From positions 186,001-250,000 of the forward strand of contig NZ_JADKSG010000001.1 of NCBI RefSeq assembly GCF_015350805.1: a DNA stretch of 64,000 bases. The letters run 5' to 3'. Source of the stretch: Herbiconiux sp. VKM Ac-1786 (GTDB taxonomy: Bacteria; Actinomycetota; Actinomycetes; Actinomycetales; Microbacteriaceae). Within the stretch, counting starts at the first letter, position 1. Each line of letters starts with the position of its first letter. The position numbers and the translations under genes were made by a program. Under the pieces are notes generated by a model. That model had not been told where the DNA came from and did not search any database. It worked only from the letters and a program-made list of their open reading frames with translations. Of the stretch, positions 1 to 64,000 are shown in pieces.

Positions 1-1198
1 ACGGTCGGGGCGGTCTAGGCGGCGGCGGGTCGAAGAGGGACGGGCGGGCGGCGGCCGGGCCGAGGACGAGTTCGACGACGTCGGCGGGGGACGTGACGCA
101 GGTGGCGTCGTACTCCCGGAGGAGGCGGTGGCAGCCGGCCGAGGTGACGCTGGTGACCGGTCCGGGGACGGCGCCGAGGGGGCGACCGAGGGCGGCGGCG
201 TGTCCGGCGGTGTTGAGCGAGCCCGAGCGGTGGCCCGCCTCGACCACCACGGTCGCTCGCGTGATGGCGGCGATCAGCCGGTTGCGCTGCAGGAAGCGCC
301 ACTTGGTGGGCGACGCCCCGCAGGGCAGCTCCGACACGACGGCGCCGCGGGCGGCGATGCGGAGCAGGAGGTCGTGGTGGGCCGCCGGGTAGAGGCGGTC
401 GACGCCGCCGGCCAGGAACGCCACCGTGGTTCCGCTGCTCACCAGCGCGGCGCGGTGCGCCATGCCGTCGATGCCGTAGGCCCCGCCGGACACGACCGAG
501 AAGCCGCGGTCGCTCACTCCCGCCGACAGCTCCATGGCGACGTGCTCGCCGTAGTTCGTGGCGTCGCGGGATCCGACGATGGCGATACCGCCGCCCGGGT
601 GGTCGACCGCCCGCACGTTCCCCCGCACCCAGAGCGCGTGCGGCGCGTGGAGATCGAGGTCCCGGCAGCCCTCCGGCCAGAGCGGATGCTCGGGGGTGAG
701 CAGCCGCGCCTCGAACCGTGCCGCCGACCGCAGCGACCCCACCACGACCCGCGACACCACCCGCGGCCGCCACCGCTCGAGCGCCGCTCCCACCACCTCC
801 GCGGTCACCCCCTCGTGCTCGATGCGGCCTCCCGCCTGATCGGGATCGGAGACCTCCGCGCCGAGCGCCGCGAGCCACTGCGCGGGCTCGGCGCGGTCGA
901 TGAGCATCGTCAGGGCGCGGTCCGCGCCGAGCGCGGCCACGACGAGCCCGGCGACCGAGTCCCCCGGCTCAGCGATACCCGACCAGGCCGCCGCCGCGAA
1001 CAGACTCGCGCCCGAGGCTTCCTCCGAACTGGAGTCGTCAGCGAGATCAGAGGAAGACGACGGAGCCGATGCCCATTCGTCGCCGGTCAGTGGAGTAGCG
1101 GACGCGGCGGGCGGCGGGGCACCGGCGCCGGCGGGCGGGACCGCGACCGCCCGTGCCAGGGTGAGGACGAGGGAGCGGTCGAGGCCGAAGAGCATCAT
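1..1198 (-). CDS. dprA: DNA processing protein DprA (3' end beyond the window)
   Basis: DprA loads RecA onto incoming single-stranded DNA during transformation; it is also found in species not known to be competent. The frame stays open from the ATG at 1198 to base 1, giving 399 codons without a stop, so the C-terminus is missing. The Rossmann-like DprA core is clear: IAIVGSRDATNYG, then VVSGGAYGIDGMAHRAAL, FLAGGVDRLYPAAH, FLQRNRLIAAIT and VVVEAGHRSGSLNTA. The first 110 or so residues are Ala/Ser-rich and less conserved. The start ATG overlaps the comM stop in ATGA, so translation is probably coupled to comM. Identification is firm; the exact start is likely. Confidence 0.95.
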   Translation of the reverse strand, partial: MMLFGLDRSLVLTLARAVAVPPAGAGAPPPAASATPLTGDEWASAPSSSSDLADDSSSEEASGASLFAAAAWSGIAEPGDSVAGLVVAALGADRALTMLIDRAEPAQWLAALGAEVSDPDQAGGRIEHEGVTAEVVGAALERWRPRVVSRVVVGSLRSAARFEARLLTPEHPLWPEGCRDLDLHAPHALWVRGNVRAVDHPGGGIAIVGSRDATNYGEHVAMELSAGVSDRGFSVVSGGAYGIDGMAHRAALVSSGTTVAFLAGGVDRLYPAAHHDLLLRIAARGAVVSELPCGASPTKWRFLQRNRLIAAITRATVVVEAGHRSGSLNTAGHAAALGRPLGAVPGPVTSVTSAGCHRLLREYDATCVTSPADVVELVLGPAAARPSLFDPPPPRPPRP

Positions 1199-2727
1199 GC
1201 CGAGACCGACTTCCGCAGGAAGAGCGCCCAGCCGACATGGTCGGGGGCCGGGGACGGCACGGCGTCGAGGTCGGCGAGGGTCCAGGCGACGCGGAGGACG
1301 CGGTCGTAACCGCGCATGGTGAGGGTACCGCGCTCGAGAGCTCGGTCGATGGGGCCCGAGGTCGCGGGTGGGAGACGGCGGGGGCGCGAGCGGAGCCACG
1401 AGCCCGGGACCTCGGCGTTCGTCTTCCACGGCGTGGCCGAGAGGCGGGCGCGGGCGACGGCGCGGGCGTTCTCGACGCGGGCTCGCGCCGAGGCGGTGGT
1501 GGTGCGCGGGAGGTCGTCGTCGGTCATCCGCACCGCCGAGGTGGTGACGCGGTTGACGCGCAGCTGCAGGTCGACGCGGTCGAGCAGCGGGCCCGAGAGG
1601 CGGCCGAGGTAGCGGCGGCGGGAGAGCGGCGAGCAGGTGCAGGGCACGTCGCCGGCGCCGTACTGGCCGCAGGGGCACGGGTTCGCGGCCAGCACGAGCT
1701 GGAAGCGGCCCGGGAAGCGCGCGGTGGCGCTCGCTCGGTGGATCACGATCGTGCCCGACTCGAGCGGCTGCCGCAGCGCATCCAGCACCGACGACGGGAA
1801 CTCGGGCGCCTCGTCGAGGAAGAGGATGCCGTGGGCGGCGCGCGCGGCGGCGCCCGGCCGGATGACCTTCGAGCCGCCTCCGACGAGGGCCGCGGCCGAC
1901 GAGGTGTGGTGCGGGCTCTCCAGCGGCGGGCGCGTGATGAGGCCGTTCAAAGGGCGGCCGGCCAGCGACGAGACCGAGGTGACCACGAGCGACTGCTCGG
2001 CGTCGAGGTCGGGCAGGAGTGCCGGGAGGCGCTGGGCGAGCATGGTCTTGCCGGCTCCGGGCGGCCCGAGCATCAGCAGGTGGTGCCCTCCGGCCGCCGC
2101 CACCACGAGCGCCTCGACGGCGTCGGCGTTGCCCACGACGTCGGCGAGGTCGCCGTCGGGTGCGGGAGGAGCGGGCGCCACCGGGAGCGTCAGCGGGTCG
2201 ACCGAGGTGGGCTCGAGCACCGCCCCGTGATGGATCAGCGTCTGCCGCAGCGACGCCACCGTCACGATCTCGACGTCGGGCACGAGCAGCGCCTCGGCGG
2301 CGTTGCCGGCGGGCACGACGAAGCGTCGGTACCCCGCGGCCCGCGCGGCGACGATCGCCGGCAGCGCGCCCTGCATCGGCCGCACCCGGCCGTCGAGGCT
2401 GAGCTCACCGAGGTGCACCACCGCGCCGATCGCCGACGCCGGGATGACGCCCTCCGCCGCGAGCACCGCCACCGCGATGGCGAGGTCGTAGGTCGACCCC
2501 TGCTTCGGCAGCGACGCCGGCGAGAGATTCACCACGATCTTCTTCGCCGGCAGGGCGCAGCCGTCGTTGGCGGCGGCGGCCCGCACCCGGTCTTTCGCAT
2601 CGGACAGCGCTGCATCCGGCAGCCCGATCAGCTGGAACCCCGGGATCGCATCGGCGATGTGCGCCTCGACCTCGACGACGGCCCCGCTCATGCCGAGCAG
2701 GGCGACCGACAGCGTTCGCGCCACCAT
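1195..2727 (-). CDS. comM: YifB/ComM family Mg-chelatase-like AAA+ ATPase
   Basis: 510 residues, the normal length. The N-terminal Lon-protease-like fold (about 20-150) is followed by a Mg-chelatase AAA+ domain with Walker A GPPGAGKT at 221-228, Walker B in HGILFLDEAPEF and the cysteine cluster NPCPCGQYGAGDVPCTC. In Gram-negative competent bacteria ComM is a branch-migration helicase that helps integrate transforming DNA; its role in actinobacteria is less clear. The start ATG shares one base with the yraN stop (TGATG). A strong Shine-Dalgarno AGGAGGT lies a few bases before it, inside the 3' end of yraN. Gene order yraN-comM-dprA is common in actinobacteria. Confidence 0.96.
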   Translation of the reverse strand: MVARTLSVALLGMSGAVVEVEAHIADAIPGFQLIGLPDAALSDAKDRVRAAAANDGCALPAKKIVVNLSPASLPKQGSTYDLAIAVAVLAAEGVIPASAIGAVVHLGELSLDGRVRPMQGALPAIVAARAAGYRRFVVPAGNAAEALLVPDVEIVTVASLRQTLIHHGAVLEPTSVDPLTLPVAPAPPAPDGDLADVVGNADAVEALVVAAAGGHHLLMLGPPGAGKTMLAQRLPALLPDLDAEQSLVVTSVSSLAGRPLNGLITRPPLESPHHTSSAAALVGGGSKVIRPGAAARAAHGILFLDEAPEFPSSVLDALRQPLESGTIVIHRASATARFPGRFQLVLAANPCPCGQYGAGDVPCTCSPLSRRRYLGRLSGPLLDRVDLQLRVNRVTTSAVRMTDDDLPRTTTASARARVENARAVARARLSATPWKTNAEVPGSWLRSRPRRLPPATSGPIDRALERGTLTMRGYDRVLRVAWTLADLDAVPSPAPDHVGWALFLRKSVSA

Positions 2728-3086
2728 CAGTGCACCTCCTGGAGGTGCTGCACGCTCGGTTCGCCGTGCGTCGGCCAGATGACGCCGACCACGTCGATGC
2801 GGAACGGCATCCGCCGCCCGGGGTGCACGGCCGCGACGTACGCCGCGGCCAGGAGATGCAGCCGCCGGAGCTTCGCGGGCGTGACGGCCTCGAACGGATG
2901 CCCGTAGGCCTCCGAGGTGCGCGTCTTCACCTCGACGATGACGAGCGCGGGCCCGTCGATCGCCACGATGTCGATCTCGCCGGTCGCGCAGCGCCAGTTG
3001 CGCTGCACCACCTGCATGCCGATCGCGGCCAGGTGCTCGGCCGCTATGCCCTCACCGCGGTGGCCCAGTTCGTCTTTCGCCTTCAT
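2727..3086 (-). CDS. yraN: UPF0102 family YraN-like endonuclease-fold protein
   Basis: 119 residues. The family has a restriction-endonuclease-like fold. The expected motifs are present: GHRGEGIAAEHL, NWRCATGEIDIVA and the VEVKTR signature, giving the E-x-D-x-E-V-K pattern of a PD-(D/E)XK site. No physiological role is established; it commonly travels with comM and dprA. I chose the ATG at 3086 (MKAKDELG) because GGAGG precedes it by six bases; an upstream in-frame TTG at 3104 would add six residues that contain this Shine-Dalgarno. Confidence 0.9.
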   Translation of the reverse strand: MKAKDELGHRGEGIAAEHLAAIGMQVVQRNWRCATGEIDIVAIDGPALVIVEVKTRTSEAYGHPFEAVTPAKLRRLHLLAAAYVAAVHPGRRMPFRIDVVGVIWPTHGEPSVQHLQEVH

Positions 3087-3536: not shown

Positions 3537-4367
3537 CTACGCGACCGACTCGACGCCGGGTTCCGGATGCCCGCCGGCACCCGCTGGCGAGACCGACCCC
3601 GCGTCCACCGCCTCCAGCGCCGACAGCGCCGCGAGGTCGAACAGCTCGGTCGACCCGACGATCCGCGACAGCCACGTGTGCCGGTGCAGCGGCGAGGCCC
3701 CGAGCGAGACGATCGCGTCGCGATGCTCTTCGCTGGCGTAGCCCTTGTTCCGCTCCCAGCCGTACGCCGGATGCTCGGCCGCGTGCTCGATCATCATCCG
3801 GTCCCGCGCGACCTTCGAGATCACCGAGGCCGCGGCGACCGAGGCGCAGTCGCGGTCGGCCTTGATCCGGGTGCGCACCGTGACCGGCACGGGAGCGGCG
3901 GCGCTCAGCCAGTCCCACTGCCCGTCGAGGATGATCGTCGCCGCCGTGACGTCCACGCCGTCGGCGAGCAGCGACTCCAGGGCGCGGCTGCCCGCCAGGC
4001 CGAGGCAGGCGCTGATCCCGAGCGAATCGATCTCGGACGCGGAGGCGTACCCGACCGCGTGGGCGAGGCTCCACGCCCGGGCGATGGGCGCGAGCTCCTC
4101 CCGCCGCGGCTCCGACAGCATCTTCGAGTCGCGCAGCCCCTTGGGCACCGACTTCGTCGCGCGGATGTCGATCACGCTGACGCCGACACCGACCGGCCCC
4201 GCGAGCGCACCGCGCCCGACCTCGTCGCAGCCGATGATCAGACCGCTGTGAGGAGCGGCGTCGGCAGGAGCATCCTGAACCGGAGGCGCAGAAGCCCGCC
4301 GACGCGGCTTCACCAGCCCCGCGATCTCACGCTCGAACCGCAGCGTGGGATCGGCGACCGGACTCAC
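3537..4367 (-). CDS. rnhB: Ribonuclease HII
   Basis: 276 residues. RNase HII cleaves the RNA strand of RNA-DNA hybrids and removes single ribonucleotides from DNA. The first acidic pair is in GCDEVGRGALAG (about 48-59); further signatures are DSKMLSE, RIKADRDCASVAAASVISKVARD and HPAYGWERNKGYASEEH. About 45 residues precede the catalytic core, longer than the enterobacterial enzyme but usual in actinobacteria. The ATG overlaps the lepB stop in ATGA (4364-4367), which implies translational coupling to the signal peptidase gene. Confidence 0.96.
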   Translation of the reverse strand: MSPVADPTLRFEREIAGLVKPRRRASAPPVQDAPADAAPHSGLIIGCDEVGRGALAGPVGVGVSVIDIRATKSVPKGLRDSKMLSEPRREELAPIARAWSLAHAVGYASASEIDSLGISACLGLAGSRALESLLADGVDVTAATIILDGQWDWLSAAAPVPVTVRTRIKADRDCASVAAASVISKVARDRMMIEHAAEHPAYGWERNKGYASEEHRDAIVSLGASPLHRHTWLSRIVGSTELFDLAALSALEAVDAGSVSPAGAGGHPEPGVESVA

Positions 4368-5671: not shown

Positions 5672-5827
5672 GATGTGTTCGCAATCTGTACCCGCCACAG
5701 GTCGACTACGGCTTCGGTGTCAGTAGAAGATGTTGTGCCCGATAGTTGCTGGCTCCCCTGTGGCAGAGCCGGGCCGCGGCACAAGGGTCCATTGTGTCAC
5801 AGACGCGCGGATGCACGCAAAGCGCGG

Positions 5828-7208: not shown

Positions 7209-7252
7209 CGCGGGCGCGCATCCGTCGCCGCCTCACGACGCCCCGGCGGCGG

Positions 7253-7963
7253 CTACTCGGGCGGCAGCAGGTCGGGCGGCAGCAGGTCGGGCCGCACCCG
7301 TCGCGTGCGCTCGAGCTGCTGCTCGCGGCGCCACGTGTCGACCGCCTTGTGGTTGCCGCTCATCAGCACCGGCGGCACGTCGAGGCCGCGCCACGAGGCC
7401 GGCTTGGTGTAGCTCGGGTACTCCAGCAGCCCGTCCTCGTGCGACTCCTCGACGAGGCTCTCGGGGTTGCCGACGACACCGGGGATGAGCCGGCCGATGG
7501 CCTCGATCATCGCCATCACGGCGACCTCTCCCCCGTTCAGCACGTAGTCGCCGATCGAGACGAGTCGCACCTCGGCACGGGTCGCGGCGTGGTCGAACAC
7601 GCGCTGGTCGATGCCCTCGTAGCGGCCGCAGCCGAACACGAGGTGCTCGCGGCCGGCCAGCTCGCGGGCCATCGCCTGCGTGAACACGGTGCCGGCGGGC
7701 GAGGGGAAGATCACGACGGGCCGGGCGTCCGGATGCTCGGGCAGCACCTCGTCGAGGGCCTCACCCCAGGGCTCCGGCTTCATGACCATGCCCGCGCCGC
7801 CGCCGTAGGGCGTGTCGTCGACCGTGCGGTGACGGTCGTGGGTGAAGTCGCGCAGGTTGTGCGGCACGACCTCGAGGATGCCCGTGCGACGCGCCTTGCC
7901 GAGCAGCGAGATGTCGAGCACGTCGAAGAACTCGGGGAAGATCGTGACGACGTCGATGCGCAT
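7253..7963 (-). CDS. trmD: tRNA (guanine-37-N1)-methyltransferase
   Basis: 236 residues. Methylates G37 of tRNAs to prevent +1 frameshifting. SPOUT trefoil-knot signatures are present: [37 protein letters not shown] and [19 protein letters not shown]. The last residues read [11 protein letters not shown], from a tandem 15-bp repeat (7259-7273 and 7274-7288). The ATG lies six bases after TAGGCT, so the mRNA is probably leaderless, and a strong hairpin separates it from rimM. trmD therefore seems to be transcribed on its own. Confidence 0.96.
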
Positions 7964-8044: not shown

Positions 8045-8632
8045 TTACTCCGCGTCGGACGCGGGTGGCGCCGGCTCGTCGTCGTCGGGCAGCTCCTCGA
8101 AGAGCCCCGTCGGCGGCGTGACGGTGACCACACCCGCGGCGAGGTCGACCGACGGCACGATCGCCTTGACGAACGGCACCATGACCTCGGTGCCCTCGTT
8201 CGTCTTGACGATCAGCAGGTCTTGCGCCGGCATGTGCTCGACGAGCTTGACGGTGCCGACCTGCTCACCGTCGCGCTCGACGCGGAGGCCGACCAGCTGG
8301 TGGTCGTACCAGGCGTCGGGCTCGGTCGAGACTGCGTCGGCCTCGTCGAGGTCGATCCAGAGGATCGCCTTGACGAGGCCCTCGGCGGCCGTGCGATCCG
8401 AAACGCCCTTGAAGAAGCCCACCGGATGCCCGTTGTACATGCGCAGCTCAGCGAGCTCGAGGGTCTCACCGTGCCAGGGCGAGGACGTGGGCACCTGGAG
8501 GGTGAACACCGCGCCCGGAACGAAACGTCGTTCCGGGTCGTCGGTGAACAGCTCCAGCTTGATCGCGCCCTTCAGCCCATGGGCCTTGGTGAGACGACCG
8601 ACCCGCAGTTGCGTCTTGTTGTTCTCAGTAAT
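8045..8632 (-). CDS. rimM: Ribosome maturation factor RimM, apparent ATT start
   Basis: 195 residues. RimM binds S19 and helps 30S head maturation. The N-terminal domain starts with LRVGRLTKAHGLKGAIKLELF; the PRC-barrel domain follows (YDHQLVGLRV, AQDLLIVKTNEG). No ATG, GTG or TTG exists in frame between a TAG inside khpA and the conserved KAHGLKG motif. The codon at the expected place is ATT, read ATT-ACT-GAG-AAC-AAC-AAG, overlapping the khpA stop. The first conventional start, GTG at 8509, would delete the conserved N-terminus. The C-terminus is acidic (DDDEPAPPASDAE). Function is certain; the start codon is an inference. Confidence 0.9.
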   Translation of the reverse strand: MTENNKTQLRVGRLTKAHGLKGAIKLELFTDDPERRFVPGAVFTLQVPTSSPWHGETLELAELRMYNGHPVGFFKGVSDRTAAEGLVKAILWIDLDEADAVSTEPDAWYDHQLVGLRVERDGEQVGTVKLVEHMPAQDLLIVKTNEGTEVMVPFVKAIVPSVDLAAGVVTVTPPTGLFEELPDDDEPAPPASDAE

Positions 8633-9508: not shown

Positions 9509-10642
9509 ATGGAGATCTCCTTCGCCCCCTCGGAGCGCTCGACCCTCGGCATCGAATGGGAGGTCGCGCTCGTCGAGCAGAGCTCGGGAGATCTGGTGTC
9601 GGTGGCGGCCGATGTGCTCGACGCGCTCCGGCAGGACGACGGCTCCGAGCATCCGCGGATCACCGGCGAACTGCTGCTCAACACGGTCGAGCTCGTCAGC
9701 GGGGTGCACCACCGGGTGGCGGATGCGGTGGACGATCTGCAGGGCCAGCTCGCCGAGGTGCGGGCCATCACCGACCCCCTCGACGTCGAGGTGATGTGCG
9801 CCGGCTCGCACCCCTTCGGGCAGTGGTTCGACCAGACCGTCACCGACAAGGAGCGCTACCACAAGCTGATCGACCGCACCCAGTGGTGGGGGCGCAACAT
9901 GATGATCTGGGGCATCCACGTGCACGTCGGCATCGACGACCGCGAGAAGGCGCTGCCGATCGTGAACTCGCTGCTGAACTACTACCCCCACCTGCAGGCC
10001 CTCAGCGCCTCGAGCCCGTTCTGGGGCGGGGTGAACACAGGATACGCCTCGAACCGGGCGCTGATGTTCCAGCAGCTGCCGACCGCGGGCCTGCCCTACC
10101 AGTTCGGCGCCTGGGCGAACTACGAGGAGTACGTCGACGACCTGCTGCGCACGGGCGTGATCAGCGACCACACGGAGGTGCGCTGGGACATCCGGCCGAG
10201 CCCGCAGTGGGGCACGGTCGAGATGCGCGCCTGCGACGGCCTGTCGAGCCCCGAGGAGATCGGGGCGGTGGCGGCGCTCATCCAGTGCCTCGTCGACGAC
10301 ATGTCGGCCCGCCTGGACGCCGGCGAGGAGCTGCCGACGATGCAGCCCTGGTACGTGCGCGAGAACAAGTGGCGGGCCGCCCGCTACGGCATGGACGCCG
10401 AGATCATCCTGAACTCCGCGGGCGACGAGCAGCTGGTGACGGATGCGGTGGCCGGCGAGCTCGTTCGCCTCGCCCCGGTCGCCGAGCGGCTGGGCTGCGC
10501 GGTCGAGCTCGACCAGGTGAACCTGATCCTCGAGCACGGCGCGAGCTATCAGCGGCAGCTGCGGATCGCCGAGGCGAACGGGGGGAGCCTGAAGGCGGTC
10601 GTGGCATCGCTCACGCGGGAGCTGCGGCACGGGCTCGCCTGA
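9509..10642 (+). CDS. YbdK-type carboxylate-amine ligase (GCS2 family)
   Basis: 377 residues. Belongs to the glutamate-cysteine ligase family 2; YbdK enzymes join glutamate and cysteine weakly, and the natural substrate in actinobacteria is unknown. Typical features: TLGIEWEVALVE at the start, GSHPFGQW, WGIHVHVGIDDREKA, SASSPFWGGVNTGYASNR and RPSPQWGTVEMRACDG. No signal peptide. GGAAAGG lies before the ATG. The organism makes mycothiol rather than glutathione by lineage, so a glutathione role is unlikely. Confidence 0.88.
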   Translation: MEISFAPSERSTLGIEWEVALVEQSSGDLVSVAADVLDALRQDDGSEHPRITGELLLNTVELVSGVHHRVADAVDDLQGQLAEVRAITDPLDVEVMCAGSHPFGQWFDQTVTDKERYHKLIDRTQWWGRNMMIWGIHVHVGIDDREKALPIVNSLLNYYPHLQALSASSPFWGGVNTGYASNRALMFQQLPTAGLPYQFGAWANYEEYVDDLLRTGVISDHTEVRWDIRPSPQWGTVEMRACDGLSSPEEIGAVAALIQCLVDDMSARLDAGEELPTMQPWYVRENKWRAARYGMDAEIILNSAGDEQLVTDAVAGELVRLAPVAERLGCAVELDQVNLILEHGASYQRQLRIAEANGGSLKAVVASLTRELRHGLA

Positions 10643-16530: not shown

Positions 16531-17398
<868 letters not shown>

Positions 17399-47406: not shown

Positions 47407-48437
<1,031 letters not shown>

Positions 48438-55400: not shown

Positions 55401-56483
55401 CTCGTCGAGCTCCAGAGCACCCTCTCCGACGCGGCCCGCGCCTCGATCTCGCGCGCGGTGCGCCAGGTTCCGGATGCCCGTCCCGCCCGCACCTCGCGCG
55501 GCGACGCACCGGGCTCCGTCGAGGGCGTCCGACGCGGCGCGGGCCCCGACGCCGTCGCGGCCGCGAGCGGCCCCGCAGCACCGACCTCGGCCGGCGATGC
55601 CGCCGGCGCCTTCCGCGAGCGGTCGCAGCTCACCTCCTGGTCGTTCGGAACTCTCCCCCACCACGTCGACACCCGCCAGCACGGCGGCGTCATCCGCGCC
55701 TATCCGGCCCTCGTCGACGAGAAGACGGGCGTCGCCCTCCGCCTGATGGCGACCCCTGAGGAGCAGGCCCGGGAGACGCCCGCGGGCATCCGGCGCCTGC
55801 TGCTGCTCGCCGTGCCGAGCCCGGCCTCCTACGTGCGGGAGCACCTCACCCAGAACGAGAAGCTGCTGCTCGCGACGAGCCCGTACCAGAACGTCAACGC
55901 GCTCTTCGACGACGCGATGACGGCGTGCGCCGACGAGGCACTGACCGCACTGCACCCAGACGGTCTCGTCTGGACGGAGGAGGAGTTCGACGCGGTGCGC
56001 GACCGCCTCTCGAAGGCCGTGCTCCCGCTGCTGGATCAGACCGTCGCCACCGTCGTGCGCATCCTGGGCGGCGTGCGCGACGTGGAGAAGGCGATCAAGT
56101 CGGTGACGAGCATGGCGCTGCTGCCGGCCATCGCCGACGCCCGCGAGCAGCTGGCCGCCCTCGTGCGCCCCGGCTTCGTCTCGGCGACCGGCCTCGCCCG
56201 GCTCGGACACCTGCCCCGCTACCTCGCGGCGATCGTCTACCGGCTCGAGATGCTGCCCGACAACCCGGCCCGCGACCGCGCCTGGATGACCGAGGTGCAG
56301 ACCGCGACGGCGCGTCTGATGGACGCCGGCGGCCGCATCCCCCTGGCGCCGCACTCGCCGCCCCACCTCGTGCGGGCCCGCTGGCTGATCGAGGAGCTCC
56401 GCGTCGGCCTCTTCGCCCAGCCGCTCGGCACCGTGGAGCCCGCCTCGCTGCAACGCGTCACGAAGCTCCTCGCGGCGCAGTAG
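52467..56483 (+). CDS. hrpA: ATP-dependent RNA helicase HrpA (DEAH box)
   Basis: 1338 residues, normal for HrpA. Walker A GETGSGKTTQ (37-46), DEAHERSLN, SATIDPESF, TNVAETSLTVPGIKYVIDAG and QRSGRSGRTSDG, followed by the ratchet, OB fold and the large DUF3418 C-terminal region (YRFEPGAADDGVTATVPL, LTSWSFGTLPHHVD). An acidic/proline-rich linker at about 200-245 interrupts the two RecA domains. HrpA in E. coli resolves stalled or colliding ribosomes. GGAGGG before ATG; TACGAT lies nine bases upstream. Single-gene transcript. Confidence 0.95.
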   Translation: MSAAPLRIVFPPELPVSQKREDIARAIEAHQVVIVAGETGSGKTTQLPKICLELGRENIGHTQPRRLAARTIAERIAEELGQEVGGLVGYQVRFTDRASKETRVKLMTDGILLNEMNHDRLLSRYDTIIIDEAHERSLNIDFLLGYLKQLLPRRPDLKLIITSATIDPESFARHFAEPDGTPAPIVEVSGRTFPVEVRYRPLAPDAPADDPADDDYDETDADEGAAPERPRATPKPRAGRGDDRPSEPKDLFEAIGDALDELAREKPGDVLVFLSGENEIRDAEEALRGKFAATGGAGQTEVLPLYGRLSAAEQHRVFQRSSTPGIRRRVVLATNVAETSLTVPGIKYVIDAGTARISRYSVRSKVQRLPIEPISQASANQRSGRSGRTSDGIAIRLYSEEDYTRRPEFTDPEILRTNLAAVILQMISLGLGDIASFPFLQPPDSRGVKDGLDLLAELGATRAGKAGEQPRLSAIGRDLARLPIEPRFARMVVESKRTNTSREVLAIVAGLTIQDPRERPLEKRGRADELHARFADQTSDFLTLLNLWNYLEEKQRELGSSAFRRLCKAEFLNYLRIREWQDVYRQLRQLAKPLGLEIGEPSVNPDGIHRSILSGLLSQIGLRDQVKRDYLGARQTRFSIFPGSTLAKKQPAAVMSAELVETSRLFARMNAAIDPGWAEAMAGDLVKRSYSEPHWEKKQGAAVAYERVTLFGVPIVVHRRVQFARIDPEYARELFIRHALVEGEWESQQAFDRANRAFRRDLEQLEERSRRRDILLDDEAVFEFYQARIPRDVVSQRSFEGWWKKARHDDPELLTMTVETLLPEGAPDVDESEFPAEWQQGDQRLALSYRFEPGAADDGVTATVPLALLPRLKPEGFEAQVPGLRRDLVTALIRSMPKRLRVNFVPATDWAGRLLDELGDLGADAGDDFPARLAALMSKLAHTPVTAADFDRAKLPEHLRVTFRVVDERGRTVGASKDLVELQSTLSDAARASISRAVRQVPDARPARTSRGDAPGSVEGVRRGAGPDAVAAASGPAAPTSAGDAAGAFRERSQLTSWSFGTLPHHVDTRQHGGVIRAYPALVDEKTGVALRLMATPEEQARETPAGIRRLLLLAVPSPASYVREHLTQNEKLLLATSPYQNVNALFDDAMTACADEALTALHPDGLVWTEEEFDAVRDRLSKAVLPLLDQTVATVVRILGGVRDVEKAIKSVTSMALLPAIADAREQLAALVRPGFVSATGLARLGHLPRYLAAIVYRLEMLPDNPARDRAWMTEVQTATARLMDAGGRIPLAPHSPPHLVRARWLIEELRVGLFAQPLGTVEPASLQRVTKLLAAQ

Positions 56484-56556
56484 CCGAGCATCCGCTCTCT
56501 CTGTTCACGACCCGGCCCACCCTGTGACCAGGATGGGAATGTAGGCTAGTTCGGTT

Positions 56557-57767: not shown

Positions 57768-58592
57768 GTGTCCCCGTCTCCCCTGCTCCCGCTCAACGAC
57801 GGCGCCGCGATGCCGCAGCTCGGCCTCGGTGTCTACAAGACGACCGACGAGGAGGCCGCCACCGCGGTCTCGTTCGCCCTCCGCCACGGCTACCGCCTGA
57901 TCGACACCGCCTCGATGTACCACAACGAGCGGGGCGTCGGCGAGGGGGTGCGAGCATCCGGAGTCGACCGCTCGGAGGTCTTGGTCACCACCAAGGTCTG
58001 GTTCACCGACAACGGCTACGACGAGACCCTGCGCGCCTTCGACGACTCGATGCGGATGCTCGGCCTCGACCACCTCGACCTCTACCTCATCCACTGGCCG
58101 GCCCCGCTCCGCGACCGGTACGTCGAGGCCTGGCGGGCGCTGATCGCCCTGCGCGACTCGGGGCGCGTGCGCTCGATCGGCGTCGCCAACTTCCACCCCG
58201 CGCACCTCACCCGGATCGTCGAGGAGACCGGCGTCGTCCCCGCCGTCAACCAGGTCGAGCTGCACCCGCGGCTGCCGCAGACCGCGCTTCGGGCCTTCGA
58301 CGCGGCGCAGGGCGTCGTGACGCAGTCGTGGTCGCCGCTCGCGCGCGGTGGCCTGATCGCCGACCCCGTACTCGCCCGCCTCGCCGCGAAGCACGGCCGC
58401 AGCCCGGCGCAGATCGTGCTGCGCTGGCACGTGCAGCTCGGTCTCGCGGTCATCCCGAAGTCGGTGACGCCGGCGCGCATCGTCGAGAACCTCGACGTCT
58501 TCGACTTCACGCTCGACGATTCCGACCTGGCGGCCATCGCCTCCCTCGAGACGGGCGAGCGCACGGGCGTCGACCCGAACGACCGCAACTGA
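57768..58592 (+). CDS. Aldo/keto reductase
   Basis: 274 residues, GTG start. (beta/alpha)8 NADPH-dependent reductase: MPQLGLGVYKTTDEEAATAV, catalytic Asp and Tyr in LIDTASMYHNERGVGEGV, Lys in VTTKVWF, His in YLIHWPAPLRDRYVEAW, SIGVANFHPAHLTRIVEET, NQVELHP and the NADPH-binding VIPKSVTPARIVENL. Related to 2,5-diketo-D-gluconate reductases; substrate unknown. Confidence 0.92.
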   Translation: MSPSPLLPLNDGAAMPQLGLGVYKTTDEEAATAVSFALRHGYRLIDTASMYHNERGVGEGVRASGVDRSEVLVTTKVWFTDNGYDETLRAFDDSMRMLGLDHLDLYLIHWPAPLRDRYVEAWRALIALRDSGRVRSIGVANFHPAHLTRIVEETGVVPAVNQVELHPRLPQTALRAFDAAQGVVTQSWSPLARGGLIADPVLARLAAKHGRSPAQIVLRWHVQLGLAVIPKSVTPARIVENLDVFDFTLDDSDLAAIASLETGERTGVDPNDRN

Positions 58593-59060: not shown

Positions 59061-60149
59061 CTAGGGGTCGGTGGGCGTCGGTGTCGTCGGGGGCACGGGC
59101 GAGGCCGGGCCCGGGACGGCGGGGGTGCGGCGGAAGGCCGCGCTGTTCGCCAGGGCGACGCCGCCGAGCACGATGAGGCCGCCGATCGCCTGCGCGAGGG
59201 TCAGCGGCTGCCCCGCGATCACCACGAAGATCGCCGTGAACACCGCGATGAGGTTGAGGAACACGCCCGCGCGCGCCGGCGGGATGACCGCGAGCGCCCG
59301 CCCCCACAGGAGGTAGGACATGACGGAGGGGAAGACGGCGATGAACCCCAGGGCCCACCAGCCGCCGTCGGTCTGCGGGAACGTCGGCCCGCCCGTGAGC
59401 AGCGACACCGGTGCGAGCAGCACCACCGCGATCGCGACCTGGGCGGCCGTGGCGCTGATGGCGGGCATCCGCGGCGCCTGGCGCAGGAGCAGCGTGTAAG
59501 CCGTCCAGGCAAGGATCGCGCCGATCATCAGCACGTCGCCCACGCCGAAGCCGCCGGTGAACAGCGACAGGATCGAGCCGCGCGAGAGCACGATCAGCAC
59601 GCCGATGAGCGCCACCAGGATACCGATCGCCGCCGTGCGCGACAGCTTCTGCCGCAGGATCACGACCGCCGCGATGCTGATCAGCGCCGGGTTGAAGGCG
59701 TTGATCAGCGAGGCGCTCAGCGCGTCGATGTGCAGCAGGGCCGAGTAGAGCAGCAGCGAGTACGCGAGGATGCCCGCCACGCTCTGCGCGAGCAGCCACC
59801 GCCAGTTGCGCCACAGCGCCCGCCAGTCGGGCCGCTCGACGAGCTGCGCGATGACGACGAGCGGCACGAGCGCGAGGCACCACCGCAGCAGCACGAGGCT
59901 CATCGGGTCGAGCTCCCGCACGGCGACGACGCCCACGACGTTGTTGCCCGCCCAGAACGCGGTCGCCAGCACCAGCGACACCACGGCGACGATCGTCGCG
60001 CGACGCGCGCCCGCCGACGATCCCGCCGCCGACCCCGGCGTCAGTCCTGGCGTCGCTCGCGCCGTCGGTTCCGGATTCGAACCCGGCGTCGATCCCGAGC
60101 CGCCCGCTGTTCCACCCGAGCCGCCCGCTGCCCCGCCCGCACCGCTCAT
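59061..60149 (-). CDS. EamA/DMT family transporter
   Basis: 362 residues with ten helices in two EamA repeats: ATAFWAGNNVVGVVAVRELDPMSLVLLRW, LLLYSALLHIDALSASLINAFNPALISIAAVVIL and the second repeat VGDVLMIGAILAWTAYTLLLRQAP, SYLLWGRALAVIPPARAGVFLNLIAVFTAI. The first 55 residues are Gly/Ser/Thr/Pro-rich and the tail is Pro/Thr-rich; both are probably disordered. I start at ATG 60149 with GGGGGAG upstream; an in-frame ATG eight codons earlier is possible. Metabolite export is likely; substrate unknown. Confidence 0.86.
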   Translation of the reverse strand: MSGAGGAAGGSGGTAGGSGSTPGSNPEPTARATPGLTPGSAAGSSAGARRATIVAVVSLVLATAFWAGNNVVGVVAVRELDPMSLVLLRWCLALVPLVVIAQLVERPDWRALWRNWRWLLAQSVAGILAYSLLLYSALLHIDALSASLINAFNPALISIAAVVILRQKLSRTAAIGILVALIGVLIVLSRGSILSLFTGGFGVGDVLMIGAILAWTAYTLLLRQAPRMPAISATAAQVAIAVVLLAPVSLLTGGPTFPQTDGGWWALGFIAVFPSVMSYLLWGRALAVIPPARAGVFLNLIAVFTAIFVVIAGQPLTLAQAIGGLIVLGGVALANSAAFRRTPAVPGPASPVPPTTPTPTDP

Positions 60150-60353: not shown

Positions 60354-61334
60354 CTACCAGCGGTCGTGGATGGCGGCCCGGAAGGAGCGGTCGTAGATCT
60401 CGTGCACGGTGGCGTCGAGGGTCGGCGGCAGCTCGAGCGAGCCGGCGGCCGCGTTCGACTCGGCCTGGGCGCGGTTGCGTGCACCCGGGATGACCGTCGA
60501 GACGCCGTCCTGCGCCGCCACCCACGCGAGCGCCGCCGCCGCCGGAGCGACCCCCGAGGGCAGAGCGGCCGCGAAGGCCTGCGCCGCCTCGACACCGGTC
60601 GCGAAGTCGACCCCCGAGAAGGTCTCGCCGACGTCGAAGGCGCTGCCGTCGCGGTTGTAGGTGCGGTGGTCGTTCTCGGCGAACGTGGTGTCGACCGTGT
60701 ACTTGCCGCTCAGCAGCCCCGACGCCAGCGGCACCCGCGCGATGATGCCGACGCCGGCCTCGCGGGCCGCCGGGAGCACCTCGTCGAGCGGCTTCAGCCG
60801 GAAGGCGTTCAGGATGATCTGCACGGTCGCCGTGCCGGGCCGCGCGATCGCGGCGAGCGCCTCGGCGGTGGTCTCGACGCTCACGCCGTAGTTCGCGATC
60901 GCGCCCTCCTCGACGAGGGTGTCGAGCGCGTCGTAGACGGCGTCGCTCGAGAAGACGGGGGTCGGCGGGCAGTGCAGCTGCACCAGGTCGAGGGTGTCGA
61001 CCCCGAGGTTGGCGCGGCTGCGATCGGTCCAGGCGCGGAAGTTCGCCAGCGTGAACTCGGCCGGATCTTGCGCGCCTCGGCGGCCCATCTTCGTGGCGAC
61101 GGTGAGCCGCGCATCCGGATTCTCGCGGCGGAAGCGGCCGATGATGGTCTCGCTGCGCCCGTCGCCGTAGACGTCGGCGGTGTCGAAGAAGGTGACGCCG
61201 GCGTCGACCGAGGCGGCGAGCACGTCGAGGGCGGCGTTCTCGTCGACGTCGCCCCAGTCGGCGCCGAGCTGCCAGGTACCGAGGCCGATGATGGAGACGG
61301 AGCGGCCGGTGCGGCCGAGGGTTCGTTCGAGCAT
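60354..61334 (-). CDS. Aldo/keto reductase
   Basis: 326 residues. Tas/YajO-like group: LGRTGRSVSIIGLGTWQLG, catalytic Asp and Tyr in TFFDTADVYGDGRSE, Lys in TVATKMGRRG, His in LVQLHCPPTP, YGVSVETTAEALAAI and VSTVIPGARNRAQAESNAAA. Different subgroup from the reductase at 57.8 kb. The ATG lies six bases after TAGGGT. Divergent from the DUF4349 gene. Confidence 0.92.
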   Translation of the reverse strand: MLERTLGRTGRSVSIIGLGTWQLGADWGDVDENAALDVLAASVDAGVTFFDTADVYGDGRSETIIGRFRRENPDARLTVATKMGRRGAQDPAEFTLANFRAWTDRSRANLGVDTLDLVQLHCPPTPVFSSDAVYDALDTLVEEGAIANYGVSVETTAEALAAIARPGTATVQIILNAFRLKPLDEVLPAAREAGVGIIARVPLASGLLSGKYTVDTTFAENDHRTYNRDGSAFDVGETFSGVDFATGVEAAQAFAAALPSGVAPAAAALAWVAAQDGVSTVIPGARNRAQAESNAAAGSLELPPTLDATVHEIYDRSFRAAIHDRW

Positions 61335-61451: not shown

Positions 61452-62495
61452 ATGAGACGAATGATCCTCGCTTCCTCCGCCGTGGTCGCGGTGCTGCTGC
61501 TGGCCGGATGCTCGGCGGCCGGCTCCTCGTCGAGCCAGTCCGAGGGCGTCCCGTACGTCGACGGGCAGCGCCTCGACCCCGCCGAGGCCGCGCCCGAGGG
61601 CGGTGTCGCGGCCGACGGCTCGACCGAGTCGCTCGCCGAGTCCGAGCAGAGCGTCATCACCACGGGCTGGATCACGATCACCGTCGACGACCCCGCCGCC
61701 GCGACCGACGACGCGATCGCGCTGGTCGACTCGCTCGACGGGCGCATCGACTCCCGCACGCAGGAGGCCGGCAGCGACGACCAGGGCGCGAGCTCGCAGC
61801 TCACCGTTCGGGTGCCGGCCGAATCGGTCGACCAGGCCGTCGACGGGCTCCGCGAGCTGGGCGACGTCGAGTCGGTGTCGATCAGCACCAGCGACGTCAC
61901 GCTGCAGGTGCGCGACCTCGACGCGCAGATCTCGGCACTGCAGGCCTCGGTCGACCGGCTGCTCGACCTGGTGGGGTCAGCGGCCACCACCGCCGACCTG
62001 ATCGAGCTCGAGACCGCGATCTCCGACCGGCAGGGGCAGCTCGACAGCCTGAAGTCGCAGAAGCAGTACCTCTCCGACCAGATCGACTACTCGACGCTGA
62101 CGCTCGACCTGCAGCAGAAGGGGGCGCTGCCCTCGGCCGCGCCCGGTGACTTCTGGCTAGGCCTCGCGGCCGGCTGGGCGTCGCTCGGCGCGACGGCCTC
62201 GGCATTCCTGGTGCTCGCCGGGGTTCTCATCCCGTGGCTGCTGCCGCTCGCAGTGCTCGCGGCGATCGCGCTGCTCATCGTCGCGGTGGTGCGCCGAGGC
62301 TCCCGCCGCGCGACCCCGCCCGCGCCCGCCGCGCCCGACACCGCGAGCACAGGCGTGGACACGTCGGCCCCCGCACCCGCCGCGGCAGCATCGGCACCCG
62401 CCACATCCGCACCCGCGCCTGCCCCAGACGCACCCACCCCAGCCCCCGACACCTCAGCCACCCCGAGCGACCACCCCCGCCCCGACACCCTCTAG
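61452..62495 (+). CDS. DUF4349 lipoprotein
   Basis: 347 residues. Lipoprotein signal with lipobox LLAGC (Cys20), a Ser-rich linker, then the DUF4349 domain: ITTGWITITVDDPAAATDDAIALVDSLDGRIDSRTQ, VRVPAESVDQAVDGLRELGDV and a coiled-coil (ISALQASVDRLLDLV, LIELETAISDRQGQLDSLK). One membrane helix follows (about 250-280) and then an Ala/Pro/Thr/Ser tail of about 60 residues. Topology suggests an anchored cell-envelope protein. Function of the family is unknown; some are linked to anti-sigma or stress roles. Confidence 0.87.
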   Translation: MRRMILASSAVVAVLLLAGCSAAGSSSSQSEGVPYVDGQRLDPAEAAPEGGVAADGSTESLAESEQSVITTGWITITVDDPAAATDDAIALVDSLDGRIDSRTQEAGSDDQGASSQLTVRVPAESVDQAVDGLRELGDVESVSISTSDVTLQVRDLDAQISALQASVDRLLDLVGSAATTADLIELETAISDRQGQLDSLKSQKQYLSDQIDYSTLTLDLQQKGALPSAAPGDFWLGLAAGWASLGATASAFLVLAGVLIPWLLPLAVLAAIALLIVAVVRRGSRRATPPAPAAPDTASTGVDTSAPAPAAAASAPATSAPAPAPDAPTPAPDTSATPSDHPRPDTL

Positions 62496-62513: not shown

Positions 62514-63830
62514 TCAGCCCGCCGGGTGCTGCTGCACCCAGAGCTCCCGCCGCAGCGTCAGCACGTGCAGCGCCGCGTCGTCGACCCGCGACGCCGGGAT
62601 CGTTCCCGCCCGCACCGCCGCCGCCAGCGACGCCACGAGCGGCGGAAGATCCACCGTGCTGTTGTAGAGCAGCACGTCGTTGCCCGCCGCCACCGCCGCG
62701 ATCGCGTTCGCCGTGCGATCCGCGTACGCCGGAACCCCCGACGCCTCGAGCATCAGCAGATCATCCGTCACCGCCACGCCCTCGAACCCGAGCTCCTCGC
62801 GCAGCACGCGATGCCACTCGGGCGAGAGCGACGCGGGCCGCGCATCCACCGCCGTGTAGGCCAGGTGCCCGAACATCACGAGCTCGGCCCCGGCATCGAT
62901 CCCCGCGGCGAACGGCGGGGCGACCTCGCTCCGCCACTGCTCCAGCGGCAGCGGCGTCGACGGGATCGACGTGTGCGAATCCCCCGCCGTCGCCCCGTGC
63001 CCCGGGAAGTGCTTCAGCGTGCTGAACACGTGCCCGCGCTCCGCCTCCACCGCGGCGGCCACCCGATCGGCCGCCGACGCCGCCTCCGTTCCGAGCGCCC
63101 GCTCGAAGATGAACGACCCGGGATCGGCGGTCACGTCGGCCACGATCCCGAAGTTCACCGTCATCCCGGTCGCCTCCAGCAGCGCCGCCCGCTGCGCGAA
63201 CGCATCGTTCGTCGACGCGACCGGCTCCGACTTCAGGGTGTCCGCCGCCGGATACCCGTCCTCCGCCAGCCGCGCCACGATCCCACCCTCCTCGTCGATC
63301 GCCACGAGGGTGCCGAGGCCCTCGCTCTGCTGCAGCGCATCCGTCAACGCCGTCGCCTGCACGCTCGACCCGGGCACGTTGTCGCCGAGCAGCAGCAGCC
63401 CGGCCGGCTGGTTCGCGGTGAGATACGCCTGCAGCGGCGCCGGATCGGCCCCGCCCACGTGCACCATCACGAGTGACGCGAGCTTCTGCTCGAGCGTCAT
63501 GGTCGACAGTCGCGCCTCGGCATACAAGCGGATGCGCTCCCCCACCGACACGACGGGGAACTCCCCGCGCACCCGCCCGCTCCCCTCCGGTGCCGCCCCC
63601 GAGGCGCCCCCCGCCGCCGACGTCGCACTCCCGGACGGGGCGACCCCCGACCCGCCACCGCCCCCGGCACTCGACGTCGCGGCACCCGCAGGCCCGCCCG
63701 CGGTTCCGCCCCCGAACAGCGCCGACCCCGTGCATCCGGAGACCGCCATCGTCGCCGCGAGCAGCACACCCGACAGCACCCCGAGGCGCCCGGCCGCCGA
63801 ACGGCGCCGGGGAGTGACCACGCGCGTCAT
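62514..63830 (-). CDS. Glycoside hydrolase family 3 lipoprotein (NagZ-like)
   Basis: 438 residues. Lipobox AVSGC (Cys33), Gly/Ser/Ala-rich linker to about residue 85, then a GH3 N-terminal barrel: MTLEQKLASLVMVHVGG, LVAIDEEGGIVARL, HVFSTLKHFPGHGATAGDSHTSIP (the NagZ His-Asp loop), ELVMFGHLAYTAVDA and EGVAVTDDLLMLEA (nucleophile Asp). Likely an extracytoplasmic beta-N-acetylhexosaminidase acting on cell-wall fragments. No GH3 C-terminal domain. The ATG overlaps the upstream gene stop (ATGA). Confidence 0.92.
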   Translation of the reverse strand: MTRVVTPRRRSAAGRLGVLSGVLLAATMAVSGCTGSALFGGGTAGGPAGAATSSAGGGGGSGVAPSGSATSAAGGASGAAPEGSGRVRGEFPVVSVGERIRLYAEARLSTMTLEQKLASLVMVHVGGADPAPLQAYLTANQPAGLLLLGDNVPGSSVQATALTDALQQSEGLGTLVAIDEEGGIVARLAEDGYPAADTLKSEPVASTNDAFAQRAALLEATGMTVNFGIVADVTADPGSFIFERALGTEAASAADRVAAAVEAERGHVFSTLKHFPGHGATAGDSHTSIPSTPLPLEQWRSEVAPPFAAGIDAGAELVMFGHLAYTAVDARPASLSPEWHRVLREELGFEGVAVTDDLLMLEASGVPAYADRTANAIAAVAAGNDVLLYNSTVDLPPLVASLAAAVRAGTIPASRVDDAALHVLTLRRELWVQQHPAG

Positions 63831-64000
63831 TCGGGCACGGGCCCGAGCAGCGCGTTCGCGACCGTGGAGTGCGCCGACTCGTCGTCGGAGGGATGGAACA
63901 TGCCCGCGACGACGTCGCGGTAGAGCCGCCCGAGCTCGCTCGAGGAGGCGATGGCCGAGCCGCCTGAGACACGCAGGGCATGATCGACGACGACGCGGGC
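63827..64000 (-). CDS. Acyl-CoA dehydrogenase family protein, C-terminal end only
   Basis: 57 codons and a stop, open to the window edge. VVVDHALRVSGGSAIASSSELGRLYRDVVAGMFHPSDDESAHSTVANALLG is typical of the last helices of acyl-CoA dehydrogenase or DszC/SfnB-like flavoproteins; the motif after RLYRDV that closes on FAD is present. The 5' part lies outside. Its stop TGA overlaps the GH3 gene start. Confidence 0.8.
   Translation of the reverse strand, partial: ARVVVDHALRVSGGSAIASSSELGRLYRDVVAGMFHPSDDESAHSTVANALLGPVPE

What the first reader, a model, noticed from the sequence alone, without database searches (positions are those of the whole stretch)
1..64000. Over-represented heptamer GCATCCG / CGGATGC, densest between genes
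Reading both strands by hand I counted about 80 copies (about 44 GCATCCG and 36 CGGATGC). Independent bases at about 72% G+C would give roughly 15. About 13 copies fall in the roughly 3.8 kb of intergenic DNA, where about one is expected: 5808, 7218, 10643, 22301, 25248, 25280, 28662, 28715, 38272, 38348, 43009, 51568, 56488. Intergenic enrichment argues against codon or dipeptide bias as the cause. The near equality of the two orientations argues against polar motifs such as Chi or KOPS. Spread, intergenic bias and inverted pairs resemble DNA uptake sequences in Neisseria and Pasteurellaceae, and dprA and comM are in this window. A common flank is GAGCATCCGCTC or GCGCATCCGGAG. Other causes (methylation site, chromosome organisation, biased mutation) remain open. 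Counts are by eye and may be off by several.
Basis: partly seen in the sequence, partly recalled or inferred. Interest (0 to 1): 0.75.

Follow-up and report, generated by a model that had tools for sequence, protein, structure and literature searches.

The report
Probable DNA-uptake tag in Microbacteriaceae
A short DNA word is scattered thousands of times through the genome of a soil and plant bacterium and, in genus-specific spellings, through much of its family, like the self-DNA tags of two Gram-negative families, so these Gram-positive bacteria may also recognise and import DNA of their own kind.

Summary
In detail: GCATCCG occurs 80 times in the window (shuffle mean 25, maximum 42), and all 13 named intergenic copies are intergenic. 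The genome holds 4,130. The unit is about CGNGCATCCG (2,000 copies, 136 of the reversed word). It is enriched between genes (45 observed, 1.3-2.1 expected) and in all six reading phases beyond synonymous codon shuffles, so it acts at DNA level. It shows no polarity around dnaA. In genes, congeners keep it better than control words; at ~80% identity copies turn over. The genus is Herbiconiux. One genome per genus, 54 of 85 Microbacteriaceae genera are enriched at least 3-fold; 0 of 38 other families. Enriched genera examined keep core GCATCC with different flanks; Clavibacter (one locus) and one unnamed genus use GGATCC. This resembles the DUS/USS of Neisseriaceae and Pasteurellaceae. Best reading: a DNA uptake (self-recognition) sequence, the first in Gram-positive bacteria if true. 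Against: uptake untested, no receptor found, no ComP-class pilin in Herbiconiux, and ComEC and a pilus-type ATPase equally present in word-poor genera. Main rival: a HIP1-like word with another function.

The parts
683..692 (-). extended copy CGNGCATCCG
2612..2618 (+). core copy GCATCCG
2807..2813 (+). core copy
2895..2904 (-). extended copy
3564..3573 (-). extended copy
3768..3777 (-). extended copy
5808..5817 (-). extended copy, intergenic
7215..7224 (+). extended copy, intergenic
7730..7739 (-). extended copy
8423..8432 (-). extended copy
9646..9655 (+). extended copy
9720..9726 (-). core copy
10440..10446 (-). core copy
10643..10649 (+). core copy, intergenic
14511..14520 (+). extended copy
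14929..14938 (+). extended copy
15707..15716 (+). extended copy
17199..17205 (+). core copy
18409..18418 (-). extended copy
18495..18501 (+). core copy
19156..19162 (-). core copy
19301..19310 (-). extended copy
20425..20434 (+). extended copy
22301..22307 (+). core copy, intergenic
22655..22661 (+). core copy
24282..24291 (-). extended copy
24415..24424 (-). extended copy
24845..24854 (+). extended copy
24998..25007 (+). extended copy
25248..25254 (-). core copy, intergenic, left arm of inverted pair between convergent genes
25280..25286 (+). core copy, intergenic, right arm of inverted pair
25976..25985 (-). extended copy straddling a gene end
27253..27259 (+). core copy
28662..28671 (-). 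extended copy, intergenic, left arm of inverted pair
28712..28721 (+). extended copy, intergenic, right arm; the pair ends 22 bases past a stop codon
28778..28784 (-). core copy
29105..29111 (+). core copy
29110..29119 (-). extended copy
31275..31284 (-). extended copy
32031..32040 (+). extended copy
32446..32455 (-). extended copy
33921..33930 (-). extended copy
34539..34545 (+). core copy
35249..35255 (-). core copy
35285..35294 (+). extended copy
37080..37086 (+). core copy
38272..38281 (-). extended copy, intergenic, left arm of inverted pair, 11 bases upstream of a - strand gene start
38345..38354 (+). extended copy, intergenic, right arm, 5 bases past the stop codon of the next - strand gene
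40651..40660 (+). extended copy
42649..42658 (-). extended copy
42844..42853 (+). extended copy
43009..43015 (-). core copy, intergenic
43977..43983 (+). core copy
44214..44220 (+). core copy
44625..44634 (+). extended copy
45053..45062 (-). extended copy
45508..45517 (+). extended copy
46451..46460 (+). extended copy
47435..47441 (-). core copy
48088..48097 (+). extended copy
49239..49248 (+). extended copy
49779..49785 (+). core copy
50227..50236 (-). extended copy
50368..50374 (-). core copy
51155..51164 (-). extended copy
51565..51574 (+). extended copy, intergenic
53077..53083 (-). core copy
53437..53446 (+). extended copy
54193..54199 (+). core copy
55471..55480 (-). extended copy
55783..55792 (+). 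extended copy
56485..56494 (+). extended copy, intergenic
57951..57960 (+). extended copy
58053..58062 (-). extended copy
59462..59471 (+). extended copy
61108..61117 (+). extended copy
61505..61514 (-). extended copy
63337..63343 (+). core copy
63529..63535 (-). core copy
63729..63738 (+). extended copy
2..1195 (-). dprA (runs off the window): context only, not shown to act on the word
   Evidence: Pfam PF02481, E 4e-66
1195..2727 (-). comM: context only
   Evidence: Pfam PF01078, PF13541, PF13335

Best explanation
The word (about CGNGCATCCG in this Herbiconiux; core GCATCC in the enriched genera examined) is a genome-wide self-recognition tag that works like the DNA uptake sequences of Neisseriaceae and Pasteurellaceae. 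Proposed mechanism: during natural transformation a surface DNA receptor binds DNA carrying the word better than other DNA. The receptor could be a pilin of the Flp/Tad pilus or a partner of ComEA; it is not identified. The DNA is drawn to ComEC, and DprA and RecA recombine it into the chromosome. DNA that has the word is imported and recombined more often, so copies accumulate wherever a mutation makes one and are replaced when one is lost. That gives thousands of copies in both orientations, tolerated in any reading frame and favoured between genes, where no protein is harmed. The receptor drifts between lineages, which gives genus-specific dialects. Shown here: the word, its DNA-level maintenance, absence of polarity, dialects, phylogenetic limits. 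Inferred: recognition during uptake, the receptor, the drive.
For: Abundance: 2,000 CGNGCATCCG against 136 reversed controls. DNA level: 45 in 32.8 kb of intergenic DNA against 1.3-2.1 expected; in genes 203 against 18-24 by Markov models, with excess over synonymous shuffles in all six frame/strand phases (forward 25/40/55 against 0.2/10.9/1.4, reverse 36/38/9 against 6.8/2.1/0.5). Conservation in genes: kept 55 of 63 in G010 against 307 of 484 for permuted words, and 59 of 69 against 290 of 553 in G001 (p 1e-4 and 6e-8). Codon-matched: CAT codons inside the word kept 22 of 23 against 13 of 32 elsewhere in G010, 22 of 26 against 13 of 35 in G001. Non-polar: 109/105 left and 42/50 right of dnaA. 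Spacing near random; similar density in co-directional, divergent and convergent gaps. Of 14 neighbouring pairs under 60 bases, 10 are in the hairpin order -+ (p 3e-4), 7 of these 10 between genes. Turnover: GCATCCG kept 317 of 773 against 24,967 of 76,128 (32.8%) for permuted words at ~80% identity (56 ordered pairs of 8 regions, not independent). Dialects: Agromyces and Cryobacterium GCGGCATCCG, Subtercola CGGGCATCC, G034 and G035 CCGCATCC, Clavibacter CGGATCC, G019 AGGATCC. Enriched at least 3-fold over control in 54 of 85 family genera, 0 of 38 other families, one genome each. Depleted on the 165-kb second contig of G022: 4 in 60 kb against 54 in 160 kb. Machinery: ComEC in 15 of 16 genus genomes; a pilus-type (PF00437) ATPase in 5 of 6 genus genomes examined, Tad type by inference. 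Natural transformation is reported for two Microbacteriaceae (PMC11577799, passages) and works through Flp pili and ComEC in Micrococcus luteus (PMC4322843, passages).
Against: No uptake experiment for this genus is known to me, and I found no receptor. N_methyl pilins (the ComP class) were not detected in any of the 16 genus genomes, so a ComP-type receptor is unlikely there. ComEC is present in 28 of 28 and a PF00437 ATPase over cut-off in 28 of 28 genomes chosen as word-poor (16) or word-rich (12), so the machine does not predict the word. G012, a MAG, shows neither ComEC nor a PF00437 ATPase over cut-off yet has a high word density; an assembly gap is possible. The two family members reported as transformable were not identified among the genomes here; small genomes are mixed (G025 ratio 0.66, G020 and G064 above 4, from counts). 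DNA flanking the word is not more alike between congeners than DNA far from it; it is slightly less alike. Intergenic conservation alone is not significant (9 of 11 against 10 of 21; 8 of 12 against 6 of 18; p 0.13 each). Contig 2, whose place relative to the origin is unknown, has 42/60 extended copies by strand (p 0.09). Agreia and Frigoribacterium exceed codon shuffles for GCATCCG in genes (46 against 17.9; 23 against 7.5) but not between genes (3 against 3.0; 1 against 1.6).
Confidence: 0.6

Rival explanations
1. A HIP1-like word: an abundant word of unknown or methylation- or repair-linked function, created and kept by a sequence-specific repair or methylation process inside the cell rather than by uptake.
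For: HIP1 of cyanobacteria is very abundant and tied to orphan methyltransferases (PMC4390886, passages). An N6/N4 methyltransferase family member exists in all 21 family genomes searched. G012 keeps the word without detected ComEC.
Against: The word is not palindromic. The methyltransferase is present and similar in word-free G028 and in G019 with its different word, and by eye its conserved stretches do not change with dialect (19 of 20 fetched align as one family, G032 differs). Near-miss words are depleted or enriched by position, and 13 single differences between congeners are of 10 types, unlike a Vsr-type repair of one mismatch. Other methyltransferase families were not searched.
Confidence: 0.2
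2. Binding site of a nucleoid or chromosome-organising protein that needs many evenly available sites and has co-evolved with its site in each genus.
For: Thousands of copies, turnover of positions with density within about two-fold between species, dialects, chromosome preference over the second contig of G022.
Against: Known site systems of this kind are polar or regional or far fewer (recalled, not tested); here there is no polarity around dnaA and near-random spacing. No candidate protein found. Such a protein would have to change specificity often.
Confidence: 0.12
3. Chi-like recombination site that protects DNA ends from a RecBCD/AddAB/AdnAB-type nuclease.
For: Abundant, genus-variable short word.
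Against: No strand preference on either side of dnaA (109/105 and 42/50; extended 56/56 and 26/27) and no heterogeneity over 20 stretches (p 0.85). Intergenic enrichment.
Confidence: 0.05
4. Codon, dipeptide or compositional bias.
For: One phase (GGC ATC CGN) has the largest expected count of the 7-mer under codon shuffling (58 expected, 94 observed).
Against: Excess of the extended word in all six phases over synonymous shuffles, and a 21- to 35-fold excess of CGNGCATCCG between genes.
Confidence: 0.01
5. Transcription signal: regulator site or intrinsic terminator.
For: Close inverted pairs prefer the hairpin order -+ (10 of 14); 7 of these 10 are between genes and 5 of 10 lie 8-35 bases past a stop codon, 2 more in divergent gaps 10 bases upstream of a start.
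Against: Most copies are inside genes (203 of 248 extended copies). Density is similar in co-directional, divergent and convergent gaps (1.54, 1.29, 1.54 per kb). Close pairs are a small minority of copies.
Confidence: 0.02

Closest known systems
DNA uptake sequence (DUS) of Neisseriaceae
   Same: About 10-12 bases, thousands of copies, dialects around a fixed core (PMC3630211: abstract and section on dialects); inverted pairs between genes and no general orientation bias in the genome (PMC2346458, part 1 of 3).
   Different: Different word. Actinobacteria instead of Proteobacteria. No N_methyl (ComP-class) pilin detected in the genus. Uptake not shown.
Uptake signal sequence (USS) of Pasteurellaceae
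   Same: Short non-palindromic motif (ca. 9-12 bases), highly enriched, two dialects, receptor only predicted so far (PMC12616744, passages).
   Different: Word unrelated, host phylum different; here more dialects and one change inside the core (GCATCC to GGATCC).
HIP1 of cyanobacteria
   Same: Very abundant genome-wide word, rare or replaced in some relatives (PMC4390886, passages).
   Different: HIP1 is a palindrome containing targets of orphan methyltransferases; this word is not a palindrome, and the one methyltransferase family examined does not track its dialects.
Micrococcus luteus transformation by Flp pili with ComEA and ComEC
   Same: Nearest studied transformation machine (same order, recalled); in Herbiconiux a ComEA-like gene, judged by eye, lies next to comEC in 9 of 10 regions, the tenth being read across a gap.
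   Different: The term uptake sequence does not occur in the M. luteus paper (0 occurrences).
Chi and KOPS
   Same: Short over-represented words (recalled).
   Different: Both are polar (recalled); this word is not, around dnaA.

Membership tests
DNA uptake sequence (general, DUS/USS) | Non-palindromic ~10-base word in thousands of copies, far above expectation | tested here: met
   2,000 CGNGCATCCG in 3.89 Mb against 136 reversed
DNA uptake sequence (general, DUS/USS) | Both orientations about equal, no replication polarity | tested here: met
   contig 2 alone 42/60, p 0.09
DNA uptake sequence (general, DUS/USS) | Enriched between genes, part as inverted pairs | tested here: met
DNA uptake sequence (general, DUS/USS) | Dialects around a fixed core within a family | tested here: met
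   core itself shifts to GGATCC in two genera
DNA uptake sequence (general, DUS/USS) | Dialects follow the species tree | not tested
   no tree was built; three close Herbiconiux genomes share one dialect
DNA uptake sequence (general, DUS/USS) | DNA with the word is taken up or transforms better | not testable with these tools
   needs an uptake assay
DNA uptake sequence (general, DUS/USS) | Host has an uptake machine | tested here: inconclusive
   ComEC in 15 of 16 and a PF00437 ATPase in 5 of 6 genus genomes, but equally present in word-poor genera; competence of Herbiconiux unknown
Neisseriaceae DUS-ComP system | ComP-type minor type IV pilin receptor | tested here: not met
   no N_methyl pilin detected in 16 of 16 genus genomes
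HIP1 | Palindrome containing the site of an orphan methyltransferase | tested here: not met
   not a palindrome; the one methyltransferase family examined is also in word-free and other-dialect genomes; other families not searched
Chi / KOPS | Orientation biased along replichores | tested here: not met
MITE or other interspersed repeat | Homologous flanks beyond the word | tested here: not met
   flank information is low from the first base outside, with weak preferences up to about 8 bases away
Intrinsic terminator | Hairpin after gene ends | tested here: inconclusive
   fits 5 of 10 close -+ pairs only

The most novel reading that the evidence does not exclude
Microbacteriaceae have their own uptake-sequence language. 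A core (GCATCC, shifted to GGATCC in at least two genera) with genus-specific flanks is read by an unknown receptor on a Flp/Tad-ComEA-ComEC transformation machine that, in Herbiconiux, works without type IVa pilins. It arose independently of the two proteobacterial cases and limits gene exchange between genera of an abundant soil, plant and freshwater family.
Probability: 0.5. Interest if true: 0.92.

Novelty: new variant of a known kind. Interest (0 to 1): 0.8.

Why it matters
[quoted passage not shown] A third, independent case in Gram-positive Actinobacteria would show that self-tagging of DNA evolves repeatedly and with another pilus type. It would give a family with several dialects for finding a receptor by co-variation, and would explain how gene exchange is channelled in abundant soil, plant and freshwater bacteria. 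In practice, adding the right dialect word to a construct could make hard-to-transform harmless Microbacteriaceae genetically accessible. If it is not an uptake word, a family-wide DNA word kept this strongly with no known reader is still unexplained.

Tried and rejected
Codon or composition bias: rejected by synonymous shuffles and intergenic counts. Polar motifs: rejected. The conserved N6/N4 methyltransferase as reader: does not track dialects. Type IV pilin as reader: none detected in the genus. TadE: matched in 50 of 60 genomes, not in G000, with no visible relation to the word. ComEC and PF00437 ATPase as predictors: present in all 28 genomes of the contrast. Local homogenisation of DNA near copies, as a sign of preferred recombination: not seen; third-position identity at 12-100 bases and beyond 2 kb was 0.845 and 0.902 for G010, 0.787 and 0.862 for G001. 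Decay of the word in G012, which lacks detected ComEC: not seen, and the genome is a MAG. Foreign DNA tested by third-position G+C: no clear trend over five gene classes. Location inside genes: mild lack in the last fifth only.

Rows dropped and part samples. L002 was left out of intergenic and codon tests (an 11-kb stretch without called genes). In one search, 4 of 6 G000 pieces found no partner in the fetched G010 stretches and 3 of 6 none in G001, because synteny was guessed; the counts rest on the rest. In one search, 77 of 80 named loci were used (L155, L202 and L217 left out). Named loci of one genus share one gene region, so their counts are not independent; in Agromyces and Cryobacterium some reading phases hold few or no copies. 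In one search, 88 of 199 family rows and 38 of 148 class rows were typed in (first genome of each genus, or of each other family, plus three more of this genus); genomes of one genus can differ (g106: about 8.4 and 1.9 from counts), so 54 of 85 depends on the genome taken. Gene calls are from my own simple caller. G025 gave too little for codon tests. In one search the first G022 stretches showed little signal; more stretches did. In G035, coding words such as CGAGCAG rank above the word.

Papers. Ten searches. None listed a paper on such a word in Microbacteriaceae; this holds only for the held open library and those terms. The four 7-mers as whole words gave five unrelated papers. Seen: passages of PMC4322843, PMC6370729, PMC11577799, PMC12616744, PMC4390886; part 1 of 3 of PMC2346458; abstract, outline and one section of PMC3630211.

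Full report
What is there. GCATCCG occurs 80 times in the window, 44 on + and 36 on -, against 25 (maximum 42) in shuffles. In the whole genome there are 4,130 copies, against 975 of the word read backwards. Reading the flanks the unit is CGNGCATCCG: 979 + 1021 copies against 56 + 80 reversed. Positions C5, A6 and C8 of the ten are the strictest: near-misses there are 0.73, 0.49 and 0.16 of the codon-shuffled expectation in genes. Positions 1 and 10 are loose: near-misses are 3.7- and 3.0-fold enriched. Weak preferences for G three and two bases upstream and C five and six bases downstream may be further contacts.

It is a DNA-level signal. Over 19 stretches of this genome (424 kb, L002 left out), intergenic DNA holds 45 extended copies where 1.3-2.1 are expected, and genes hold 203 where 18-24 are expected by Markov models. 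When synonymous codons are shuffled among genes, each of the six frame and strand phases of the extended word still exceeds expectation, including phases that need A- or T-ending codons such as GCA, CAT and GAT. In two congeners, G010 (93-94% identical over the aligned parts) and G001 (90-92%), the extended word in genes is kept in 55 of 63 and 59 of 69 cases; permuted words of the same letters are kept in 307 of 484 and 290 of 553. In G010 the CAT codon is kept in 22 of 23 cases inside the word and in 13 of 32 outside it. Intergenic copies show the same direction but the numbers are small and not significant alone.

How it is arranged. Orientation is even on both sides of dnaA (at G000:C1:1386 kb) and over 20 stretches (heterogeneity p 0.85); contig 2 alone has 42/60 extended copies (p 0.09) and its place relative to the origin is unknown. 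Spacing is close to random, and density is similar in co-directional, divergent and convergent gaps. Of 14 adjacent pairs closer than 60 bases, 10 stand in the order CGGATGC...GCATCCG. Of these 10, 7 lie between genes and 3 inside genes; 5 lie 8-35 bases past a stop codon and 2 in divergent gaps 10 bases upstream of a start. At about 80% identity 317 of 773 copies of GCATCCG are kept, against 24,967 of 76,128 permuted words (56 ordered pairs of 8 regions), while density stays within about two-fold between species (1.07-2.27 per kb). So copies come and go while the number is roughly held, as expected of a process that acts on the word anywhere rather than of fixed sites.

Where it occurs. Named neighbours put the genus as Herbiconiux: contigs of G015, G004 and G012 have the lengths of named Herbiconiux contigs (H. 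solani, H. oxytropis, a MAG), and the nearest MetG proteins are mostly Herbiconiux. All 16 genus genomes are enriched for CGNGCATCCG, 4.0- to 16.4-fold over control; 23 genomes of 19 other families of the order range from 0.7 to 2.5. For GCATCCG, taking one genome each, 54 of 85 family genera are at least 3-fold over control, 23 are under 2-fold, and none of 38 other families of the class reaches 3-fold (highest 2.4).

Dialects. With codon-shuffle controls, the core GCATCC stays and the flanks change by genus or clade. The own clade (G000, G001, G010) has CGNGCATCCG. Six other Herbiconiux (G006, G014, G003, G007, G002, G015; 40 kb each) prefer C directly before the core and C four bases before it; G004 differs again. 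G016 has about GCGGCATCCG, G021 about CGCGGCATCCG, G022 CGGGCATCC, G034 and G035 CCGCATCC. Among named genera, Agromyces and Cryobacterium use GCGGCATCCG, Subtercola CGGGCATCC and Clavibacter CGGATCC (38 against 4.0 in genes, 6 against 1.8 between genes, one 21.6-kb locus). The unnamed genus of G019 has AGGATCC: 62 against 10.6 in genes, 12 against 1.15 between genes. Agreia and Frigoribacterium show no excess between genes (3 against 3.0; 1 against 1.6) but do exceed codon shuffles in genes (46 against 17.9; 23 against 7.5). G028 has none (29 GCATCC against 41 expected), and genus g72 is depleted (0.30 of control).

Mechanism. The pattern matches uptake sequences in the sequence-level features I could test. 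Natural transformation has been reported in two small-genome Microbacteriaceae (PMC11577799, passages), and Micrococcus luteus uses Flp pili and ComEC (PMC4322843, passages). Herbiconiux has ComEC in 15 of 16 genomes, a comEA-like gene (judged by eye) next to it in 9 of 10 regions examined, the tenth (G004) being read across a gap, no detected N_methyl pilin in 16 of 16, and a PF00437 ATPase in 5 of 6 genomes examined. A Tad-based machine with an unknown receptor is therefore the likeliest reader. This part is inferred. The machine's genes are equally present in word-poor genera (28 of 28 genomes each), so they do not predict the word.

Rivals. Chi and KOPS fail on polarity. A HIP1-like word is the main rival and cannot be excluded: the word is not a palindrome, and the one methyltransferase family examined does not follow the dialects, but other readers inside the cell were not searched. 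A chromosome-organising protein is possible. The second contig of G022 (165 kb, probably a plasmid, not typed) has 4 copies in 60 kb while the chromosome has 54 in 160 kb; any host-specific word would show this, so it does not decide between the readings.

Literature. [quoted passage not shown] My ten searches of the held library listed nothing on such a word in Microbacteriaceae. Papers outside that library were not searched.

Verdict. The uptake reading is the best supported and is directly testable. Novelty: a new variant of a known kind if uptake is shown; an unexplained family-wide word otherwise.

Noticed in passing
G000:C1:1239528-1240406 (L223) and L224-L242: An N6/N4 DNA methyltransferase family member is found in 21 of 21 family genomes searched; of 20 fetched, 19 align as one family. 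The clade of G000, G001 and G010 carries a Pro/Ala-rich insert.
   Followed up: partly
G012 (MAG GW715_bin.41), L143 and L243: No ComEC and no PF00437 ATPase over cut-off detected, yet a high density of the word; either an assembly gap or a lineage that lost the machine.
   Followed up: partly
G088 and G157 (genus g72): GCATCCG is depleted to about 0.3 of the reversed control in this family genus.
   Followed up: no
L028-L030 (G023): Repeat with GGTTGAGGAG, about 12-17 copies of its words between genes in 60 kb, few in genes.
   Followed up: no
L051-L052 (G031): Intergenic repeat with GCAGGGCCGCAGG-like words, about 17 copies between genes in 40 kb.
   Followed up: no
L002, about 3435-14415: An 11-kb stretch without genes by my caller, in a stretch of lower G+C (0.634); could be a ribosomal RNA operon plus an island.
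   Followed up: no
window:20957-22291: DUF222-family protein (Pfam PF02720).
   Followed up: no
window:20213-20285: tRNA-Gln (anticodon ttg) on the - strand.
   Followed up: no
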